Source: Cyanobium sp. NIES-981 (lineage in GTDB: Bacteria > Cyanobacteriota > Cyanobacteriia > PCC-6307 > Cyanobiaceae). Taken from it: a stretch of DNA of 64,000 nucleotides. Of the stretch, positions 55,820 through 64,000 are shown in pieces (the stretch's first letter is position 1; each line of letters opens with the position of its first letter). The DNA lies in the NCBI RefSeq assembly GCF_900088535.1, contig NZ_LT578417.1:2418001-2482000 (forward strand), in the 5' to 3' direction. The translations under genes and the position numbers were made by a program. The notes below the pieces were generated by a model, which was not told the origin of the DNA, did no database searches, and saw only the letters and a list, made by a program, of their open reading frames with translations.

Positions 55820-57167
55820 GCAGCAGCACGGGATTCATCGGCGCCAGCCGGGTGCCGTCGGCCAGGGGCGCCCCGCGCCAGCTCTGGTGCTGACCCACCG
55901 CCACCGCGAGCCCGGCCTGCTCCAGGCAGGGGCGCAGCTCGGCCAGGGCCTCGACTGTGGCCAGGGGCAGCACCACCACACCACCCGGCCGCAGCCGGGG
56001 CAGCACGGCCTCGAGGATCGCCCGCCGGTCCCGGCCGCCGCCGCCCAGCAGCACCCGATCCGGCGCAGGCAGCTCTGCCAGCACCTGCGGCGCCCGGCCC
56101 TCCAGCACCGCCTCCGGCTGCACGCCCAGCCGGGCGGCATTGGCCCGGATCAGGGCGCTGGAGCCGCCGCGGGCTTCCACGGCCCAGAGCCGCAGGCCCG
56201 GCCGCAGCCGCAAGGCCTCCAGGCCCACCGAGCCCACCCCTGCCCCCACATCCCAGAGCACGCCGCTGGCGGGCAGGGCCAGATCGGCCAGCAGCTGGAT
56301 GCGCACCTCCCGCTTGGTCATCAGCCCGGGCCGATCCGCGTGCTGCAGGAACAGACCATCGGGCAGGCCGAACAGGGGGAGGGAGGCCGGATCGGGCGGC
56401 GGTGGCGGCTCGGCGATCAGCAGCACCAGGTGCAGGGGGTCCAGATCGGCTGGCAGGGGGCCATCCGGCGCCAGCCGCTGCACCCGCTCCCGGGGATGGC
56501 CGAGCCGCTCGCACAGCCACAACGCATAGGCCGCCTCCAGGCCGGAGGCGGCCAGGAGCCGACGCACCTCCTCCACCCCCCCGCGGCCGGGATCAGTGAG
56601 CACCGCCAGGGCGGCGGGGCGCTTCTGCAGCGCCGCCGCCAGGGGTTCGGGGTCGCGGCCGTGCAGGCTCACCCAGCTGGCGTCCTGCCAGGGGCGGCCG
56701 AGGCGGGCGAAGGCGAGCTGCAGGCTGGAGGGGGCGGGGTGAAAACGCAGGCGCTCGCGGGGAAAGCGCTGCAGCAACAGCCGGCCGATGCCGAACCAGA
56801 GGGGATCGCCACTGGCCAGCAACACCGCCGGCCGGCCGGCCGCGAAGGCCTGCTCCAGGGGGCCATGGATGAGCTCCGGCCTGTCGCTGGCCAGCAGTTC
56901 GGGACCCTCCGATCCCGCCGGCACCCGGCCGGCCGCCTGCTCCTCCTGCCACCAGGGGGCCAGGTCCGCCAGCAGCCGCGCCGGGGCCAGCACCAGACGA
57001 GCCTGCCGCAGCAGCGCCAGGCTGCGGGGCGCCAGGCCGGCCACCCCGGCGGCATCGGTGCCGATCACCTCCAGCACGCCGGGAGGGGTCGTCGCATGCT
57101 CGCTGCTGGCGGCCGCTGCCGGCTCGCTGCCCTGGGTGCCTTCTGCCATGGCAGCCATGATGCTCAT
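55791..57167 (-). CDS. cobL: Precorrin-6Y C5,15-methyltransferase (decarboxylating)
   Basis: A 458-residue fusion of the CbiE-type methyltransferase (N-terminal half) and CbiT-type methyltransferase/decarboxylase (C-terminal half), which methylates the corrin ring at C5 and C15. The first half shows VIGTDAAGVAGLAPRSLALLRQARLVLAP and VLLASGDPLWFGIGRLLL, and the second half VLWDVGAGVGSVGLEALRLRPGLRLWAVEA (SAM motif) with VLLGGGGRDRRAILEAVLPRLRPGGVVVLPL. The start ATG at 57167 gives a 28-residue Ala/Glu-rich leader; 57158 or 57149 are alternatives. No other corrin gene is adjacent. Confidence 0.93.
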   Translation of the reverse strand: MSIMAAMAEGTQGSEPAAAASSEHATTPPGVLEVIGTDAAGVAGLAPRSLALLRQARLVLAPARLLADLAPWWQEEQAAGRVPAGSEGPELLASDRPELIHGPLEQAFAAGRPAVLLASGDPLWFGIGRLLLQRFPRERLRFHPAPSSLQLAFARLGRPWQDASWVSLHGRDPEPLAAALQKRPAALAVLTDPGRGGVEEVRRLLAASGLEAAYALWLCERLGHPRERVQRLAPDGPLPADLDPLHLVLLIAEPPPPPDPASLPLFGLPDGLFLQHADRPGLMTKREVRIQLLADLALPASGVLWDVGAGVGSVGLEALRLRPGLRLWAVEARGGSSALIRANAARLGVQPEAVLEGRAPQVLAELPAPDRVLLGGGGRDRRAILEAVLPRLRPGGVVVLPLATVEALAELRPCLEQAGLAVAVGQHQSWRGAPLADGTRLAPMNPVLLLRGERRRAG

Positions 57168-57222
57168 CCCAGCCTTGATCGAGCGTCAGCCGCCGGGGAA
57201 ACCCACTGCTGACTTGAACGGC

Positions 57223-58725
57223 ATGGCGCCAAGCGTCTTCAACGGGATGGCACCCACACCGACACCCTTCACCGTGGTTCAGGTGGGCAGCCTTGGGGTG
57301 ATCGGCGACAACGTCTACCGCATGCACGAACCAGCCGCCGCCATGGCCCGGCTGCCCAATGTGGAGGTGTTCGAGGTGCACGCCCTGGCGCGCGATTGGG
57401 ATGCAGCGGCCCTCGCCGCTGATGTGCTGGTGCTCACCATGACGATGGATGTCGAGGTGTTCCGCCTGGTCCACCAGCGCCGGCAGCTGGGCAAGCCCAC
57501 CGTCTGCGAGGTGAACGACTACCTGCCCGACGTGCAGCCCTGGAACCCCGCCCACCGCTCCTGGGCTGATCCACGGGCACGGCGGCTGTTCGAAGAACTG
57601 ATCCGCCGTTGCGACGCCACCCAGGTGACCACGGCGGCCCTGGCCCAGCGGCTGGCGCCCCTGGCGCAGCGCCTGGCGGTGTTCCCCAACCAGATCGCCC
57701 AGCTACCACCGCCCCGACAACGCAGCAGCAACGGCGAGCTGAGCGATGAAGCCCGCCAGGTGGTGGTGGGTTGGGGTGGCTCCATCGGCCACATGGAAGA
57801 CCTGCGCGCCATCGCTCCGGCCCTGGGCCGCTGGTTGCAGGGCCAGCCGCGGGCAAGGCTCGAGATCATGGGCGACCCTGCCCTGGCAGCGTTCTTTGCA
57901 GACGTGCCCCGCCAGCAGTTCCGCTTCCATCGCGCCGGGCCACTGCCGCACTACCTCGCCTGGCTGGGCAGCCTCGACATCGGCCTGGCACCACTGCTGA
58001 CCACGGAGTTCAACCGCTGCCGCTCGGATGTGAAATTCCTGGAGTACGCCGCCGCTGGCGTCACCCCGGTGCTGCAGCGGCTCGATCCCTACGCCGGGGT
58101 GTGCGATGGCGTCACCGGCTTTCTGTTCTCTGATCAGGAACAACTGCTGTCGATCATGGATCAGCTGATCGCCGATCCAGCTCTGCGCCGGCAAGTGGCC
58201 GATTCCGCCTACAAGCAGGTGGCCCGCCAGCGCCGCGGCGACGACCATGCCGCCCGGCGGATCGCCTTCTACCGCGAGCTGCAGGGTGGTTGCCGAGCAG
58301 CCATGGAGCCCTTGCCGGCTGCGCTGCAGCGGGCCGGCACCCGCCCTCTCCACAGCCTGCGCGGTGCCAGGCAGCTGGCGGAGCGCCTGTTTCGCCTCGA
58401 TCTGAGCACTCCGGCGGAACGCCACCTGGCCGCGGGAATGGACGCCCTGCAGATCGGGGCGTTGGAGCGGGCGATGGGCGAATTCAGCGCTGCCGTGCGC
58501 CTCGATCCGTCAGACCCCCATGCCCTCACCTTCCTGGGGCACTGCCAGCTGCGGCAGGGAGAGCTCCTGGCGGCGCGGGAAGCCTTCGAGGGGGCGGTCG
58601 CGCTGGATCCCCTGCTGTCGCGCCCGGTGCGCGCCCTGGCCCGGCTTCACCGCCAGGCCGCGGAGCACTACGGCCGTGTGGCCCATGGGCTCAACCCGTT
58701 CGAATCTTCCGGCAGCGCCCCATGA
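57223..58725 (+). CDS. Glycosyltransferase (group 1-like) with C-terminal TPR segment
   Basis: A 500-residue protein. Residues 10-390 look like a GT4-type transferase: VVQVGSLGVIGDNVYRMHEPAAAM, PTVCEVNDYLPDVQPW, FPNQIAQLP, VVGWGGSIGHMEDLRAIAPAL, LEIMGDPALAAFF, LDIGLAPLLTTEFNRCRSDVKFLEYAAAGVTPVLQRLDPY and CDGVTGFLFSDQ, with the terminal conserved acid region. The last 110 residues (LSTPAERHLAAGMDALQIGALERAMGEFSAAVRLDPSDPHALTFLGHCQLRQGELLAAREAFEGAVALDP) are two or three TPRs. ATG at 57223 is taken; 57247 is an alternative. The stop overlaps the next start by 4 bases (ATGA). First gene of the surface cluster. Confidence 0.85.
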   Translation: MAPSVFNGMAPTPTPFTVVQVGSLGVIGDNVYRMHEPAAAMARLPNVEVFEVHALARDWDAAALAADVLVLTMTMDVEVFRLVHQRRQLGKPTVCEVNDYLPDVQPWNPAHRSWADPRARRLFEELIRRCDATQVTTAALAQRLAPLAQRLAVFPNQIAQLPPPRQRSSNGELSDEARQVVVGWGGSIGHMEDLRAIAPALGRWLQGQPRARLEIMGDPALAAFFADVPRQQFRFHRAGPLPHYLAWLGSLDIGLAPLLTTEFNRCRSDVKFLEYAAAGVTPVLQRLDPYAGVCDGVTGFLFSDQEQLLSIMDQLIADPALRRQVADSAYKQVARQRRGDDHAARRIAFYRELQGGCRAAMEPLPAALQRAGTRPLHSLRGARQLAERLFRLDLSTPAERHLAAGMDALQIGALERAMGEFSAAVRLDPSDPHALTFLGHCQLRQGELLAAREAFEGAVALDPLLSRPVRALARLHRQAAEHYGRVAHGLNPFESSGSAP

Positions 58726-60587
58726 GCCAGGCCCTCGGCGCCCTGCTCCAGCAGCGTGGTGATCTCCAGGGGGCCAGCGAGGCCTACCAGCAGGCCCTGC
58801 AGCGCGATCCGGCCAATGCCGAGGCGGCAGACCAGCTCACCCTGCTGGCCCGCCAACTGCGGCACGGCGACCAGGCCGAAGCGGCGGAAGCCGCCCTGCG
58901 CGCCGTGCTGCGCGCCGCACCCCGGCACCCGGCGGCCCTGTTCGAGGCCGGCGTACTGCTGATGGGCCAGGCGCGCTTCCCGGCGGCACGGGCCTGTCTG
59001 GGGCGGCTGGTGCGCCTGGAGCCCCGCCACCGCGATGGGCTGTTCCAGTACGGCCAGGTGCTGGAGGCCCTGGGGGATCCGGAGGCCGCCATCGCCGCCC
59101 ACGTCCGCGCCCTGCAGTGCGATCCGTCCGCCACCGACGTGCTGGTGCATCTGCAGGTGCTGCGGCTGCGGCTCTGCGACTGGCACCGGCACCACGAGCG
59201 GCTGGCTCGGATGATCCAGCGGCTCGAGCAGCACGCCAGCCGGCCGGCCGCCGCGCCGATCACCCCGCTGCGACTGCTCAGTTTCCCGCTGCCGCTGGCG
59301 CTGCAGCGCCGCCTCGCTGAGCGCTACAGCGCATCCACCGTTGCGCCACCGCCGGCACCACCACTACGGGCAGCGAAGGCGCTGTCAACGCCCCCGGCTG
59401 CCCCGAGACAGGGGCGGATCCGCCTCGGCTATCTCTCCGCCGATTTCCGCCACCACGCGATGGGCACCCTCCTGCATGGCTTGTTCCGGCATCACGATCG
59501 GGAACGCTTTGAGGTGTTCGCCTATTCCCTCGCCGACCTTGAGGATGCCTACACCGCCTCGGTGCGCCAGGGCGTTGATACATACACCGTGGTGTGCGGA
59601 TGGAGCAACGGCGCGATCGCGGATCGCATCCGCGCTGACCGCATCGACGTGCTGATCGATCTGATGGGCCACACCCACCACGGCCGCCCGGCGGTGCTGG
59701 CCCAGCGGCCCGCTCCGCTGCAGCTGCACTATCTGGGCTACCCCGGATCGCTGGGTGCCAGCTGGATCGATGGGCTGATCGCCGATGCCCAGCTCATCCC
59801 AGTGGAGCTGGAGCACGGCTACAGCGAACCGATCCTGCGGCTGCCCTGGGGCTTCGTGAGCTCTCCAGCCCCTGAGCCCTGCGACAACGTGGCTGATGGC
59901 CTGGAACGGCAGCGCGCCCGGCAACGAGCCGGCTTGCCCGCGAAGGCTGTGGTGTTCGCCTGCTTCAACCGGCCTGAGAAGCTCGATCCAGATCGCTTCT
60001 CGCTCTGGCTGGCCATCCTCCTGCAGGTGCCCGGTTCAGTGCTGTGGCTGCTGATGGAGCACCCCCTGGTGCGCCAGCGCTTGCGCCAGTACGCCAGTGC
60101 CGCCGGTGTTGATCCGGCGCGGATCGTGTTTGGAGATCAGGTGGGCAGCGGGGAGTTCAGCGCCCTGTGCTCCCTGGCCGATCTGTTCCTCGACACCGCG
60201 TGCTACGGCTCCGGCGCCACCGCCGTGGCAGCCCTGGCCGCCGGCCTGCCGTTGCTCACCTGCCCTGGCGAGAGCTTCTCCTCACGCATGGGCACCAGCC
60301 TCTGCGCCGCCACCGGTCTGGACGAGCTGATCTGCCCAACGCCCGAGGCCTACCGAGAGCGCGCCATTGCCCTGGGCCGTAACCCCCAGCGCTTGCGGCA
60401 GCTGAGCCGCCACCTGCTCAGCCAGCAGGCAACACTGCCCCTGTTTCAGACCAGCGCCTGGGTACGTGAGTTCGAGCTGCTGCTGCTGAGGCTGGTGAAT
60501 GCCGGGCTGCCGGCCGAGGACACCGCAGGATGTAGACATCATGAAGATCAGCCGGGTTCAGGGGATAATCCTTTGGCGCCGGATTAA
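58722..60587 (+). CDS. O-GlcNAc transferase-like protein (TPR plus GT41)
   Basis: A 621-residue protein resembling SPINDLY/OGT enzymes that glycosylate Ser/Thr residues of proteins. TPRs fill residues 1-150 (MSQALGALLQQRGDLQGASEAYQQALQRDPANAEA, VLLMGQARFPAARACLGRLVRLEPRHRDGLFQYGQ). The GT41 catalytic part follows: [111 protein letters not shown] and SLADLFLDTACYGSGATAVAALAAGLPLLTCPGESFSSRMGTSL. Overlaps the preceding gene by 4 bases and ends 8 bases before the next frame, so all three genes are likely co-transcribed. Bacterial members glycosylate surface proteins or other targets. Confidence 0.88.
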   Translation: MSQALGALLQQRGDLQGASEAYQQALQRDPANAEAADQLTLLARQLRHGDQAEAAEAALRAVLRAAPRHPAALFEAGVLLMGQARFPAARACLGRLVRLEPRHRDGLFQYGQVLEALGDPEAAIAAHVRALQCDPSATDVLVHLQVLRLRLCDWHRHHERLARMIQRLEQHASRPAAAPITPLRLLSFPLPLALQRRLAERYSASTVAPPPAPPLRAAKALSTPPAAPRQGRIRLGYLSADFRHHAMGTLLHGLFRHHDRERFEVFAYSLADLEDAYTASVRQGVDTYTVVCGWSNGAIADRIRADRIDVLIDLMGHTHHGRPAVLAQRPAPLQLHYLGYPGSLGASWIDGLIADAQLIPVELEHGYSEPILRLPWGFVSSPAPEPCDNVADGLERQRARQRAGLPAKAVVFACFNRPEKLDPDRFSLWLAILLQVPGSVLWLLMEHPLVRQRLRQYASAAGVDPARIVFGDQVGSGEFSALCSLADLFLDTACYGSGATAVAALAAGLPLLTCPGESFSSRMGTSLCAATGLDELICPTPEAYRERAIALGRNPQRLRQLSRHLLSQQATLPLFQTSAWVREFELLLLRLVNAGLPAEDTAGCRHHEDQPGSGDNPLAPD

Positions 60588-60595
60588 GCCCCAGA

Positions 60596-62620
60596 TTGGG
60601 CAGACCGCACCGGGCTTCGCTGCGCTTCCTGAGTTCCCCAGCCCTTGCCGCTTGGCTGATCCAGCAGCAGGTTTCCCTCGCCTTCTCCACCTACCGCGCC
60701 AATCGGGTCCTCTTTCTTGGCGTTGATCCCCAGGGCCGTTGCGCCCTGCACGAGCGCCTGTTTGATCGGCCGATGGGGCTGTTCGTGGCCGGCGAGAGCC
60801 TATGGATGGCGGCCCGCTGCCAGATCTGGCGCCTCGACAACCTGCTCGGCCCAGGCCACCTGCATGAAGGCGGCGACCGGCTCTATGTGCCTGCTGCCGC
60901 CTTCACCACCGGCGATGTGAACGCGCATGAAGTGGTGCTTGGCACTGATGGCCAGCCGATCTTCGTGAACACGGCCTTCAGCTGCCTGGCCACCCTGGCG
61001 CCGCTCTGCAGCTTTGCGCCCACCTGGGCCCCTCCGTTCATCAGCAAACTGGCCGGCGACGACCGTTGCCATCTCAACGGCCTGGCCCTCCAAGACGGTA
61101 TCCCCACCTGGGCCACCGCCTGCGGCGGCAGCGGTGAACCCTCCTCCTGGCGCAACAACCGCACCAAAGGCGGGGTGCTGCTCCACATCCCCAGCAACAG
61201 CATCACCGCCACGGGTCTCTCGATGCCCCATTCGCCCCGCTGGCATGGCGGCAAGCTCTGGCTGCTCAACTCCGGCACCGGTGAATTGGGCTGGATCGAG
61301 AACGGCTTGTTCCAGAGCCTCTGCGCCCTGCCGGGCTTTGTGCGGGGATTGGCCTTTGCGGGCGGCTGCGCCGTGGTGGGGCTCTCCAAGCTGCGCTCGC
61401 CCCAGTTCACTGGCCTGCCGCTGGAAGAACGCCTGAATGCCGAGGCCATCCCGGGCGGCTGTTGCGGCCTGCGGGTGATCGATCTGGCCAGTGGGCAGGT
61501 TCTCCACAGCCTCGATCTACCCGAGCCCATCGATGAGCTCTTTGATGTGGCCATCCTCCCCGGCGTGCGCCAGCCCCGCGCCCTCGGCCTCCAGGGCGAG
61601 GAGATCGACTGCCTGGTGAAAATCCCCGATCTGCCCGAACTCCTGCACGTGCGGCCCCTGGCCCCCAGCGGCAAGCCCCACCAGGGGCCGGCGGTGCGGC
61701 CCTTTGGCCTGCCCGAACCCTCGGCGCCAACGGCCGATACCCCCATCCGCTATCAGCGGGTGTTCCATCTCACCCCCGCCAACCTCGCCCCCTACGCCGA
61801 ACTCACCTTCCCTTCCCTTGCCCCCGGAAGCAGCGCCCTCGCCCGCATCCAGGGCGAACTGCTGGGCCTTTCCGCCATGGCCACCGGCGCCATGGTGGGT
61901 TTCGCGATTGCCGAGCGGCTCGCCGCTGGCGGTGCCCAGCTGCTCTCCCTCAAGGTGGATCCCGCCTGGCGCCGCCGCGGCATCGGCACCGGCCTGCTGC
62001 AGCGGCTGATGGTGTTTCTCGCCAAGGAGGGCATCACACCGCTGAACCTCCGCTACAAGGCCAGCCCGGAGATCAGCGCCTGCTTTGAGCCCATCCTGGC
62101 GCGCCTGGGCTGGAGTCAACCCCGCACCGATTTCGTGCTTCTGGAGGGCCGCAGCGATCAACTCGCCGCGATCGACTGGGCCGATCGCCATCCGATCACC
62201 CCCCCCTACAGCCTCCTTCCCTGGCACCAGCTCAGCGAGCCTCAACGGGCCCAGGTCGCCAGGCTCGACGCCCCGGCCGAATTACAGCCACCGGCCAATC
62301 CAGAGGGGCTCGAGCCATCGATCTGCCTGGCCCTGCTGCACCACGACAGCCCGGTGGGCTGGGTGCTGGCCCATCGCACCGGCGCTGCCAGCGTGCGCTA
62401 CTCCAGCCTCTATGTGACCCCAGCCCATCGCGGCCGTGCCCGTGCCCTGGCCCTGCTGGCAGAAGCATTTCGCCGTCAGCACGCCGCCGCCATCCCCACG
62501 GCCCGTGCCGCCATCGACCGCCGCAACTCCGCGATGCTGCGCCTGCTCAAACGACACCTCGGTCTGCACCTGAGCAGCGTCGGCCGCTCCCGAGTGACCC
62601 AGTCGATGTTGCTGCAGTAA
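60596..62620 (+). CDS. TIGR03032 family protein with two C-terminal GNAT domains
   Basis: A 674-residue protein. Residues 1-340 fit TIGR03032 (a beta-propeller-like family of unknown function): FSTYRANRVLFLGVDPQGR, MGLFVAGESLWMAARCQIWRLDNLL, DVNAHEVVLGTDGQPIFVNTAFSCLATLA, LNGLALQDGIPTWATACG, and ELFDVAILPGVRQPRALGL. The remaining 330 residues contain two acetyltransferase-like domains, with acetyl-CoA loops LKVDPAWRRRGIGTGLLQRLM and LYVTPAHRGRARALALLAEAF; the second lacks the full Q/RxxGxG/A pattern. The start is a TTG at 60596; a later start is possible. The family often accompanies TPR and sulfotransferase genes in polysaccharide clusters. Confidence 0.8.
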   Translation: MGRPHRASLRFLSSPALAAWLIQQQVSLAFSTYRANRVLFLGVDPQGRCALHERLFDRPMGLFVAGESLWMAARCQIWRLDNLLGPGHLHEGGDRLYVPAAAFTTGDVNAHEVVLGTDGQPIFVNTAFSCLATLAPLCSFAPTWAPPFISKLAGDDRCHLNGLALQDGIPTWATACGGSGEPSSWRNNRTKGGVLLHIPSNSITATGLSMPHSPRWHGGKLWLLNSGTGELGWIENGLFQSLCALPGFVRGLAFAGGCAVVGLSKLRSPQFTGLPLEERLNAEAIPGGCCGLRVIDLASGQVLHSLDLPEPIDELFDVAILPGVRQPRALGLQGEEIDCLVKIPDLPELLHVRPLAPSGKPHQGPAVRPFGLPEPSAPTADTPIRYQRVFHLTPANLAPYAELTFPSLAPGSSALARIQGELLGLSAMATGAMVGFAIAERLAAGGAQLLSLKVDPAWRRRGIGTGLLQRLMVFLAKEGITPLNLRYKASPEISACFEPILARLGWSQPRTDFVLLEGRSDQLAAIDWADRHPITPPYSLLPWHQLSEPQRAQVARLDAPAELQPPANPEGLEPSICLALLHHDSPVGWVLAHRTGAASVRYSSLYVTPAHRGRARALALLAEAFRRQHAAAIPTARAAIDRRNSAMLRLLKRHLGLHLSSVGRSRVTQSMLLQ

Positions 62621-62704
62621 AAGCCATCGCAACCTGATAGGCTCCCGCGCGATTCTTGACGGCAAGAGCTAGAGGTAGGCGCCACTAGGTGCAGCCACCA
62701 CCTC

Positions 62705-62722
62705 GAATCCCAAGTGGGATTC
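62705..62722 (+). promoter_or_regulatory. Inverted repeat upstream of the repeat-protein gene
   Basis: Perfect 8-bp arms GAATCCCA/TGGGATTC separated by only two bases lie 71-88 bases upstream of the GTG start at 62793. The 172-bp gap shows no gene and no T run after the repeat, so an operator is more likely than a terminator. Inference from symmetry. Confidence 0.45.
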
Positions 62723-62792
62723 CTGATCTGGCCAGGCCCAGCCCGGAGCACCTGAGTTCAGCCCCTCCACTCTTTCCCATCGGCTTCCATCC

Positions 62793-64000
62793 GTGACCCA
62801 GCTCCTGCTCGCCGGCACCTCCATTGCTGCCACCTCCCACCTGGAGATGGCACTGCAACGGGTGAACAACCGCCTGCAGGCCTGGGCCAGCAATACCCAC
62901 GCCTACAACGCCCACCTGCTCGACGTTTTCGGGGCGCAGAGCAGCGAGGCCACCAGCACCCTCCAGGCCAGCCTCAGCGGCGCCGGGCTGGGGATCCGCC
63001 TGGAGATCCTCGATGGCTCTACCCTCAGCGGCATCAACGCGGCCTACACCAGCGCCGCAGCCGATGGCACTGAACGGATCTATCTCAATGCCACCTGGCT
63101 GCAGAACGCCACAGCCGTGCAGATCGAGGCGGTGCTGCTGGAAGAGCTCGGCCATGCCATCGACAGCCGCCTCAATAGTGGCGCTGACACCCCCGGCGAC
63201 GAGGGTGAAATCTTCTCCGCCCGCCTGCGCGGCACCACACCCGCTACCACAGCCTTCACAGAAGACGACCAGCAGCTGATCAACCTCAACGGCCAGAACC
63301 TGATGCTGGAAGCTGCTGCGGACACCACTCCGCCTAGAGGGAGCTTCTTCCAGGGTGCGGCCTTTGCCGCACCCTCCACCAATCCCTTCGGGATTACCGA
63401 TGTGGGCCGCTACGCCAGCCCGGCCCTCGCGGATGCCGACGGCGATGGCGATCTGGATCTCTTCATTGGCAATAGCGACGGCAACACACTCTTTTTCCGC
63501 AACACCGCCAGCCCTGGCGCCACCGCTCCCTCCTATGCCGCAGCCTCCACCAATCCCTTCGGGATATCCGATGTGGGCTCCTACGCCAAGCCTGCCTTCG
63601 CGGATGCCGACGGCGATGGCGATCTGGATCTCTTCATTGGCAATAAAGACGGCAACACACTCTTTTTCCGCAACACCGCCAGCCCTGGAGCCACCGCTCC
63701 CTCCTATGCCGCAGCCTCCACCAATCCCTTCGGGATGACCGATGTAGGCTACTTCGCCAAGCCGGCCTTCGCGGATGCCGACGGCGATGGCGATCTGGAT
63801 CTCTTCATTGGCAATAAAGACGGCAACACTCTCTTTTTCCGCAACACCGCCAGCCTTGGCGCCACCGCTCCAGCCTTTGACGCACCCTCCACCAATCCCT
63901 TCGGGATCACCGATGTAGGTTCCTTCGCCAGCCCGGCCTTCGCGGATGCCGACGGCGATGGCGATCTGGATCTCTTCATTGGCAATTCCTACGGCAACAC
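62793..64000 (+). CDS. Large FG-GAP/VCBS-repeat protein, N-terminal part
   Basis: An uninterrupted frame from GTG at 62793 leaves the right edge after 402 codons without a stop. It begins TQLLLAGTSIAATSHLEMALQRVNNRLQAW, with no classical signal peptide. Residues 114-124 (VLLEELGHAID) resemble the E-x-x-H helix of zinc peptidases but lack the second His, and the surroundings (SRLNSGADTPGDEGEIFSARL) are common at the heads of giant cyanobacterial repeat proteins. From residue 190 onward, four 57-residue repeats follow, each with DADGDGDLDLFIGN, a calcium-binding loop of the FG-GAP/VCBS type. Probably a secreted, calcium-stabilised surface protein exported by a type I system (C-terminal signal would lie outside the window). 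Confidence 0.85.
   Translation, partial: MTQLLLAGTSIAATSHLEMALQRVNNRLQAWASNTHAYNAHLLDVFGAQSSEATSTLQASLSGAGLGIRLEILDGSTLSGINAAYTSAAADGTERIYLNATWLQNATAVQIEAVLLEELGHAIDSRLNSGADTPGDEGEIFSARLRGTTPATTAFTEDDQQLINLNGQNLMLEAAADTTPPRGSFFQGAAFAAPSTNPFGITDVGRYASPALADADGDGDLDLFIGNSDGNTLFFRNTASPGATAPSYAAASTNPFGISDVGSYAKPAFADADGDGDLDLFIGNKDGNTLFFRNTASPGATAPSYAAASTNPFGMTDVGYFAKPAFADADGDGDLDLFIGNKDGNTLFFRNTASLGATAPAFDAPSTNPFGITDVGSFASPAFADADGDGDLDLFIGNSYGN
63361..64000 (+). repeat. Tandem 171-bp coding repeats
   Basis: The landmark AATCCCTTCGGGAT recurs starting at 63381, 63552, 63723 and 63894, always exactly 171 bases apart, so the unit is 57 codons with no length drift. The copies are almost identical at the DNA level (long identical stretches, including GCGGATGCCGACGGCGATGG), with scattered substitutions that mostly change residues between the calcium loops. 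The array continues past the window, and the fourth copy is incomplete. Confidence 0.93.

What the first reader, a model, noticed from the sequence alone, without database searches (positions are those of the whole stretch)
60596..62620. TIGR03032 fused to tandem acetyltransferase domains
TIGR03032 has no assigned function. Here it is fused to two GNAT-like domains, the second with a degenerate acetyl-CoA loop, giving a direct functional hint: the propeller-like domain may bind the glycan or protein that the first GNAT domain acetylates.
Basis: partly seen in the sequence, partly recalled or inferred. Interest (0 to 1): 0.6.

Follow-up and report, generated by a model that had tools for sequence, protein, structure and literature searches.

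The report
Propeller-acyltransferase modifier of giant secreted proteins
A cyanobacterial protein joins a beta-propeller of unknown function to a pair of acyltransferase domains, and the genes around it and around its relatives suggest that it chemically modifies the giant surface or secreted protein encoded next door, which gives the unstudied propeller family (TIGR03032) a testable role.

Summary
The fusion is real: one intact 674-aa ORF (60596-62620) with TIGR03032/DUF4915 (residues 10-342) and two GNAT domains (about 385-520 and 538-674). It is not an assembly join. TIGR03032-GNAT fusions occur across Cyanobacteriota, also as TIGR03032-GNAT-TPR-GT41. The second acetyl-CoA loop is degenerate here (one Gly to Ala), but relatives keep the Gly. 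TIGR03032 is a predicted six-bladed propeller with residues invariant across three phyla. It is also fused to O-GlcNAc-transferase-like GT41, GT2, sulfotransferase/hydroxylase and TPR domains. Its gene sits beside a giant FG-GAP/RTX/cadherin-type protein in 39 of 62 loci, against 0 of 191 control genes; outside cyanobacteria the neighbour is usually an autotransporter or anchored surface protein. The GNAT pair is homologous to tandem GNATs of lanthipeptide-type clusters, one of which is shown to acylate lysine. Here the ORF lies in a cassette of about 9.5 kb (GT4, GT41, TIGR03032-GNAT-GNAT, FG-GAP protein) absent from that site in nine congeners. Best reading: a cytosolic modification cassette in which the propeller engages the giant exoprotein and GNAT1 acylates it. 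Acylation, donor and target residue are inferred, not shown.

The parts
60596..62620 (+). TIGR03032-GNAT-GNAT fusion gene, TTG start, 674 aa
   Evidence: same architecture in relatives
60623..61621 (+). TIGR03032/DUF4915 domain (residues 10-342), predicted six-bladed beta-propeller
   Evidence: 448 bits to TIGR03032; model pLDDT about 80-98 by block in 11-330; VIA Z 23.8 to nidogen YWTD propeller
61748..62155 (+). GNAT1 (residues 385-520)
   Evidence: PF00583; model
61970..61987 (+). GNAT1 acyl-CoA loop R459-RR-G462-I-G464
   Evidence: R459, G462, G464 invariant in A1; loop alignment
62207..62617 (+). GNAT2 (residues 538-674)
   Evidence: GNAT-like fold in model; homologous to second domain of RiPP tandem GNATs
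62429..62446 (+). GNAT2 loop R612-GR-A615-R-A617, degenerate here (Gly to Ala at 615)
   Evidence: Gly kept in L036, L042, L044, L082-L085
58722..60587 (+). TPR-GT41 (O-GlcNAc-transferase-like) gene; its ATG overlaps the stop of the preceding gene and it ends 8 bp before the fusion gene; only GT41 gene of the genome
   Evidence: PF13844 228 bits; start; genome search
57241..58725 (+). GT4-like glycosyltransferase with C-terminal TPR
   Evidence: PF13524 26.2 bits and TPR
62793..64000 (+). Start of a 1210-aa FG-GAP repeat protein with C-terminal Hint_2 domain (continues past the window to about 66425): proposed substrate
57168..64000 (.). Accessory cassette, about 57.2 kb to about 66.9 kb in window coordinates, absent between CbiET-like and GH-like flanking genes in nine congeneric genomes

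Best explanation
The protein is one enzyme of a cytosolic modification cassette for a giant secreted repeat protein. The TIGR03032 propeller engages the polypeptide of the neighbouring FG-GAP protein before export. GNAT1, which has the intact acyl-CoA loop, transfers an acyl group (acetyl or longer) to an amino group of that protein, most likely a lysine side chain. GNAT2 probably shapes the acceptor groove or is structural. The upstream GT4 and GT41 glycosyltransferases modify the same protein. Shown by tools: the fusion and its conservation, the predicted folds, the intact first loop, the link of TIGR03032 to giant secreted proteins and to other modifiers, the homology of the GNAT pair to RiPP-cluster tandem GNATs, and a cassette-sized presence/absence difference between congeners. 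Inferred: cytosolic location, the physical contact, acylation itself, the acyl donor and the acceptor residue.
For: Adjacency: 39 of 62 TIGR03032 loci have an FG-GAP/RTX/cadherin-type gene within 2.5 kb (31 of them downstream on the same strand) against 0 of 191 control genes from TIGR03032-carrying genomes; 18 of 23 GNAT-fused genes do, and three of the other five lie at contig ends. Own genome: one TIGR03032 gene, one GT41 gene and two FG-GAP_3 places in 3.02 Mb; the first two and one FG-GAP gene are contiguous. Domain swapping: TIGR03032 joined to GNAT-TPR-GT41, TPR-GT41 in both orders, GT2-TPR, Glyco_tranf_2_5, and Asp_Arg_Hydrox-Sulfotransfer_3. Outside cyanobacteria: autotransporters or anchored surface proteins adjacent or one gene away. 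GNAT pair: the annotated non-TIGR03032 plasmid hits whose surroundings were opened sit in Nif11/NHLP RiPP clusters; several cyanobacterial stand-alone relatives sit with LanM and NHLP/Nif11 precursors; profile match E 4.6e-64 over 286 columns. NpuN, a tandem GNAT with its loop in the first domain, acylates Lys1 of NpuA from acyl-CoA in vitro (PMC13060382). Site without the cassette in nine congeners.
Against: TIGR03032 also occurs alone next to autotransporters, so it may act without a GNAT. 23 of 62 loci showed no such neighbour within 2.5 kb; some are contig-limited. One TIGR03032-GNAT-GNAT gene (L039) has its nearest one 9.6 kb away. The FG-GAP neighbours are not lysine-rich, and several are lysine-poor against their own neighbours. 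No FG-GAP protein is known here to be acylated. The adjacency seeds and threshold were chosen after looking at the loci, and the 62 loci are not phylogenetically independent.
Confidence: 0.5

Rival explanations
1. The GNATs acetylate an amino sugar of a glycan that the GT4 and GT41 enzymes put on the exoprotein, and the propeller binds that glycan.
For: Glycosyltransferases adjacent or fused; Foldseek also lists glucosamine N-acetyltransferases among tandem GNAT folds; one relative fuses the same GNAT pair to an N-terminal part that looks GT-like by eye, not tested by Pfam (L210).
Against: The sequence relatives of the pair found here sit mostly in peptide-modification clusters.
Confidence: 0.2
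2. TIGR03032 is itself an enzyme that makes a first modification of the exoprotein, and the fused GNATs or glycosyltransferases elaborate it.
For: D94, C130, W144, D156, C158, H159 and R250 invariant and H111, N161, H212, S213, R215, R186, R267, E314 nearly so in 71 sequences from three phyla; several lie at the start of predicted strands, as active sites do in propeller enzymes (inference); stand-alone copies next to autotransporters.
Against: No sequence similarity to a known enzyme family found; best structural matches are YWTD propellers, known protein binders, though fold alone does not show function.
Confidence: 0.2
3. Association without substrate relation: TIGR03032 genes travel with adhesin and glycosylation islands but act on something else, such as cell-surface polysaccharide.
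For: Patchy distribution (25 of 250 genomes of the order), plasmid copies, accessory block; one plasmid locus with ACP, adenylate-forming enzyme and glycosyltransferase but no exoprotein nearby.
Against: The exoprotein gene is often within about 250 bp downstream on the same strand, across phyla and secretion types.
Confidence: 0.1

Closest known systems
TIGR03032 / DUF4915 (PF16261) family
   Same: Full-length match well above cut-off; also found fused or alone in other bacteria
   Different: Curated as function unknown; the GNAT fusion and the link to giant secreted proteins are not described in the searched library
Tandem GNATs of RiPP clusters (selidamide/nostolysamide type, e.g. NpuN)
   Same: Two GNAT domains with homology over both; intact loop in the first
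   Different: Here fused to a propeller and next to a 1210-aa FG-GAP protein, not a small leader-peptide precursor; NpuN itself was not compared directly
HlyC-type RTX toxin lysine acyltransferases (PF02794)
   Same: As recalled from general knowledge: GNAT-like fold, acylate lysines of a type I-secreted protein encoded next door, before export
   Different: No match to PF02794 in the Pfam scan at E up to 1; analogy only
SPINDLY/OGT-like GT41 protein glycosyltransferases
   Same: GT41 is in the cassette, and fused to TIGR03032(-GNAT) elsewhere
   Different: Separate gene here; its acceptor is unknown
Tandem GNAT enzymes MshD, VipF, clavulanic-acid tandem GNAT
   Same: Same predicted tandem GNAT fold
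   Different: MshD model scores 15.6 bits against a cut-off of 163.1

Membership tests
TIGR03032 | Score above curated cut-off over the whole model | tested here: met
   448.3 against 251.5 bits, model positions 2-334 of 335
GNAT superfamily, domain 1 | Pfam cut-off and Q/R-x-x-G-x-G/A loop | tested here: met
   PF00583 47.5 against 20.7 bits for the protein; R459-RR-G462-I-G464
GNAT superfamily, domain 2 | Q/R-x-x-G-x-G/A loop | tested here: not met
   R-G-R-A-R-A in this protein; GNAT-like fold present in model; loop glycine intact in several relatives
RiPP tandem GNAT acyltransferases (selidamide type) | Homology across both GNAT domains | tested here: met
   hhalign E 4.6e-64, 286 columns, against alignment A4 of RiPP-cluster and related stand-alone tandem GNATs; BLASTP 3e-17 and 1e-20
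RiPP tandem GNAT acyltransferases (selidamide type) | Small NHLP or Nif11 leader-peptide precursor and RiPP enzymes in the locus | tested here: not met
   Neighbours on the coding strand are GT4, GT41 and an FG-GAP protein
RiPP tandem GNAT acyltransferases (selidamide type) | Transfers acyl groups to Lys/Orn side chains | not testable with these tools
   Needs biochemistry
HlyC-type acyltransferases (PF02794) | Sequence match to the family model | tested here: not met
   No PF02794 match at E up to 1
Mycothiol synthase MshD | NCBIfam equivalog cut-off | tested here: not met
   15.6 against 163.1 bits
YWTD/NHL-type six-bladed propellers | Fold | tested here: met
   VIA Z 23.6-23.8, 235-239 aligned residues, rmsd 2.8-3.0 to 1npe; predicted models

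The most novel reading that the evidence does not exclude
TIGR03032 defines a general module, possibly an enzyme in its own right, of modification systems for giant exoproteins exported by different secretion routes in several phyla. Fused or neighbouring GNATs, glycosyltransferases, hydroxylases and sulfotransferases are interchangeable add-ons, and the GNAT-fused forms lipidate surface proteins with enzymes related to lipopeptide-forming RiPP acyltransferases.
Probability: 0.25. Interest if true: 0.85.

Novelty: new variant of a known kind. Interest (0 to 1): 0.62.

Why it matters
TIGR03032 is an orphan family found in at least three phyla. Linking it to giant secreted proteins and to interchangeable modifying enzymes makes its function directly testable, and points to an unrecognised acylation or glycosylation of cyanobacterial FG-GAP/RTX-type exoproteins. 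It also links RiPP lipidation enzymes with modification of giant surface proteins.

Tried and rejected
Assembly join or frameshift: rejected, since the same one-ORF fusion is in other genera; one apparent split (Cyanobium sp. Aljojuca 7A6, L131/L133) falls at contig ends. A conserved dead second GNAT: rejected, the loop glycine is kept in several relatives. Phage origin: no match in 50,697 phage records. Sequence-related solved structures: only GNATs for the GNAT part, none for the propeller. Literature on TIGR03032/DUF4915: no paper in the searched library. Selidamide paper PMC8784127 is not held, so NpuN and kamptornamide GNATs were not compared directly. A simple motif count for neighbours missed PF01839-type FG-GAP proteins and was replaced by phmmer with seeds, most of them Pfam-checked. 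Lysine content of the FG-GAP neighbours was not informative. Promoter and terminator scan of 56900-63200 found none. The GNAT tree puts the TIGR03032-fused and GT-fused pairs together (86/93) but is unrooted with several long branches, so the direction of descent is not claimed.

Full report
What is there. The window lies at 2418001-2482000 of a 3.02-Mb single-contig genome whose named relatives are Cyanobium, Synechococcus and Vulcanococcus. ORF 60596-62620 is intact, starts with TTG and ends in TAA. TIGR03032 matches residues 10-342 with 448 bits; two GNAT stretches follow. A model from a 40-sequence alignment (pLDDT 87.9) shows a propeller, a disordered linker and two GNAT-like folds. The propeller's best matches are YWTD propellers (Z 23.8; a stand-alone member gives Z 23.6). 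Foldseek ranks tandem GNATs first for the whole model.

Is the fusion real and old? Yes. The same single-ORF T-GNAT-GNAT architecture occurs in several genera of the family (L036, L039-L046) and in other families of the class (L082, L084, L085); L083 carries three GNATs and L047 and L081 one. T-GNAT followed by TPR and GT41 occurs in L037, L080, L087, L089 and L093. The first acyl-CoA loop is conserved in nearly all of them. The second has Ala for one Gly here and in some relatives, while others keep Gly.

What TIGR03032 keeps company with. In one protein: GNATs, GT41, GT2, Glyco_tranf_2_5, Asp_Arg_Hydrox plus sulfotransferase, TPR. Next door: FG-GAP, RTX, Ig/cadherin-type giant proteins. By phmmer with seeds most of which were Pfam-checked, 39 of 62 loci have such a gene within 2.5 kb and 31 have it downstream on the same strand, against 0 of 191 genes of at least 250 aa from 20 control regions of TIGR03032-carrying genomes. 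These loci are related to one another and the seeds were picked after a first look, so the Fisher value is a description, not a test of independent events. In a 386-genome sample, 45 of 56 genomes with TIGR03032 have FG-GAP_3 against 72 of 330 without; genome size and kinship confound this. On plasmids of Phyllobacterium, Novosphingobium (two strains), Loktanella and Planctomyces the gene lies next to or one gene from an autotransporter or a choice-of-anchor protein; in Diaphorobacter it follows a sulfotransferase, with an IPTL-CTERM protein beyond that; one locus (Qingshengfaniella) has no such neighbour.

The local cassette. GT4-TPR (57241-58725), TPR-GT41 (58722-60587, ATG overlapping the previous stop), the fusion gene and the FG-GAP protein (1210 aa, C-terminal Hint_2) run in one direction. 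The GT41 and TIGR03032 genes are the only ones of the genome, and FG-GAP_3 has one other place. The flanking CbiET-like and GH-like genes (named from their sequence, not from a family search) are 9,797 bp apart here but 317-698 bp apart in nine congeners and about 1.6 kb in a tenth. The block is therefore accessory; an insertion here or loss elsewhere cannot be told apart. Two of the nine congeners (G090, G221) carry a TIGR03032 gene elsewhere in their genome.

What the GNAT pair is related to. Against 72,556 plasmids, hits without TIGR03032 are few; the annotated ones whose surroundings I opened (Mesorhizobium, Shinella, Ensifer, Aminobacter) sit in Nif11/NHLP RiPP clusters, and a frameshifted Microcoleus copy lies beside an ABC transporter and a radical SAM-like gene. 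Stand-alone relatives in cyanobacteria lie with LanM and NHLP/Nif11 precursors in several loci; others (L205, L212, L213) show no clear RiPP context. The two profiles match over 286 columns at E 4.6e-64. The nostolysamide paper reports that the tandem GNAT NpuN, with its loop in the first domain, puts acyl groups from acyl-CoA on a lysine side chain of a RiPP (PMC13060382).

Mechanism. The partner enzymes change while the neighbouring giant exoprotein stays, so the common element TIGR03032 most simply deals with that protein. GNAT1 has the intact loop and the pair resembles peptide acyltransferases, so acylation of the exoprotein, probably on lysine, is my best guess (0.5). GT41 and GNAT chemistry needs sugar nucleotides and acyl-CoA, hence the cytosol before export (inference). 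The invariant residues of TIGR03032 leave open that it is an enzyme.

Verdict. Observation confirmed; interpretation partly supported and widened. A new variant of a known kind: tandem GNAT acyltransferases attached to an orphan propeller in an exoprotein-modification cassette.

Noticed in passing
window 62793-64000, continuing to about 66425 (L031:10794-14426): The FG-GAP repeat protein ends in a Hint_2 (hedgehog/intein-like) domain, suggesting self-processing after or during export.
   Followed up: partly
L210:7182-9077: The same GNAT pair follows an N-terminal part of about 340 aa that looks glycosyltransferase-like by eye; no TIGR03032; a large protein that looks secreted lies nearby.
   Followed up: partly
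L105:7740-10778: Asp/Arg beta-hydroxylase, sulfotransferase and TIGR03032 in one protein, next to a stand-alone TIGR03032 gene.
   Followed up: partly
L083:6422-8950: TIGR03032 followed by three GNAT domains.
   Followed up: partly
L170 (Ensifer sp. PDNC004 plasmid): Two GNAT genes in a Nif11 RiPP cluster lie directly beside an MBG-domain protein and a ShlB/FhaC-type transporter, a possible bridge between RiPP acylation and two-partner-secreted giant proteins.
   Followed up: no
L160 (Qingshengfaniella alkalisoli plasmid): TIGR03032 next to an acyl carrier protein, an adenylate-forming enzyme, an acyltransferase and a glycosyltransferase, without an obvious exoprotein.
   Followed up: no
L158:7775-8681 (Microcoleus vaginatus PCC 9802 plasmid): A frameshifted tandem GNAT of the same family near a radical SAM-like gene and an ABC transporter.
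   Followed up: no
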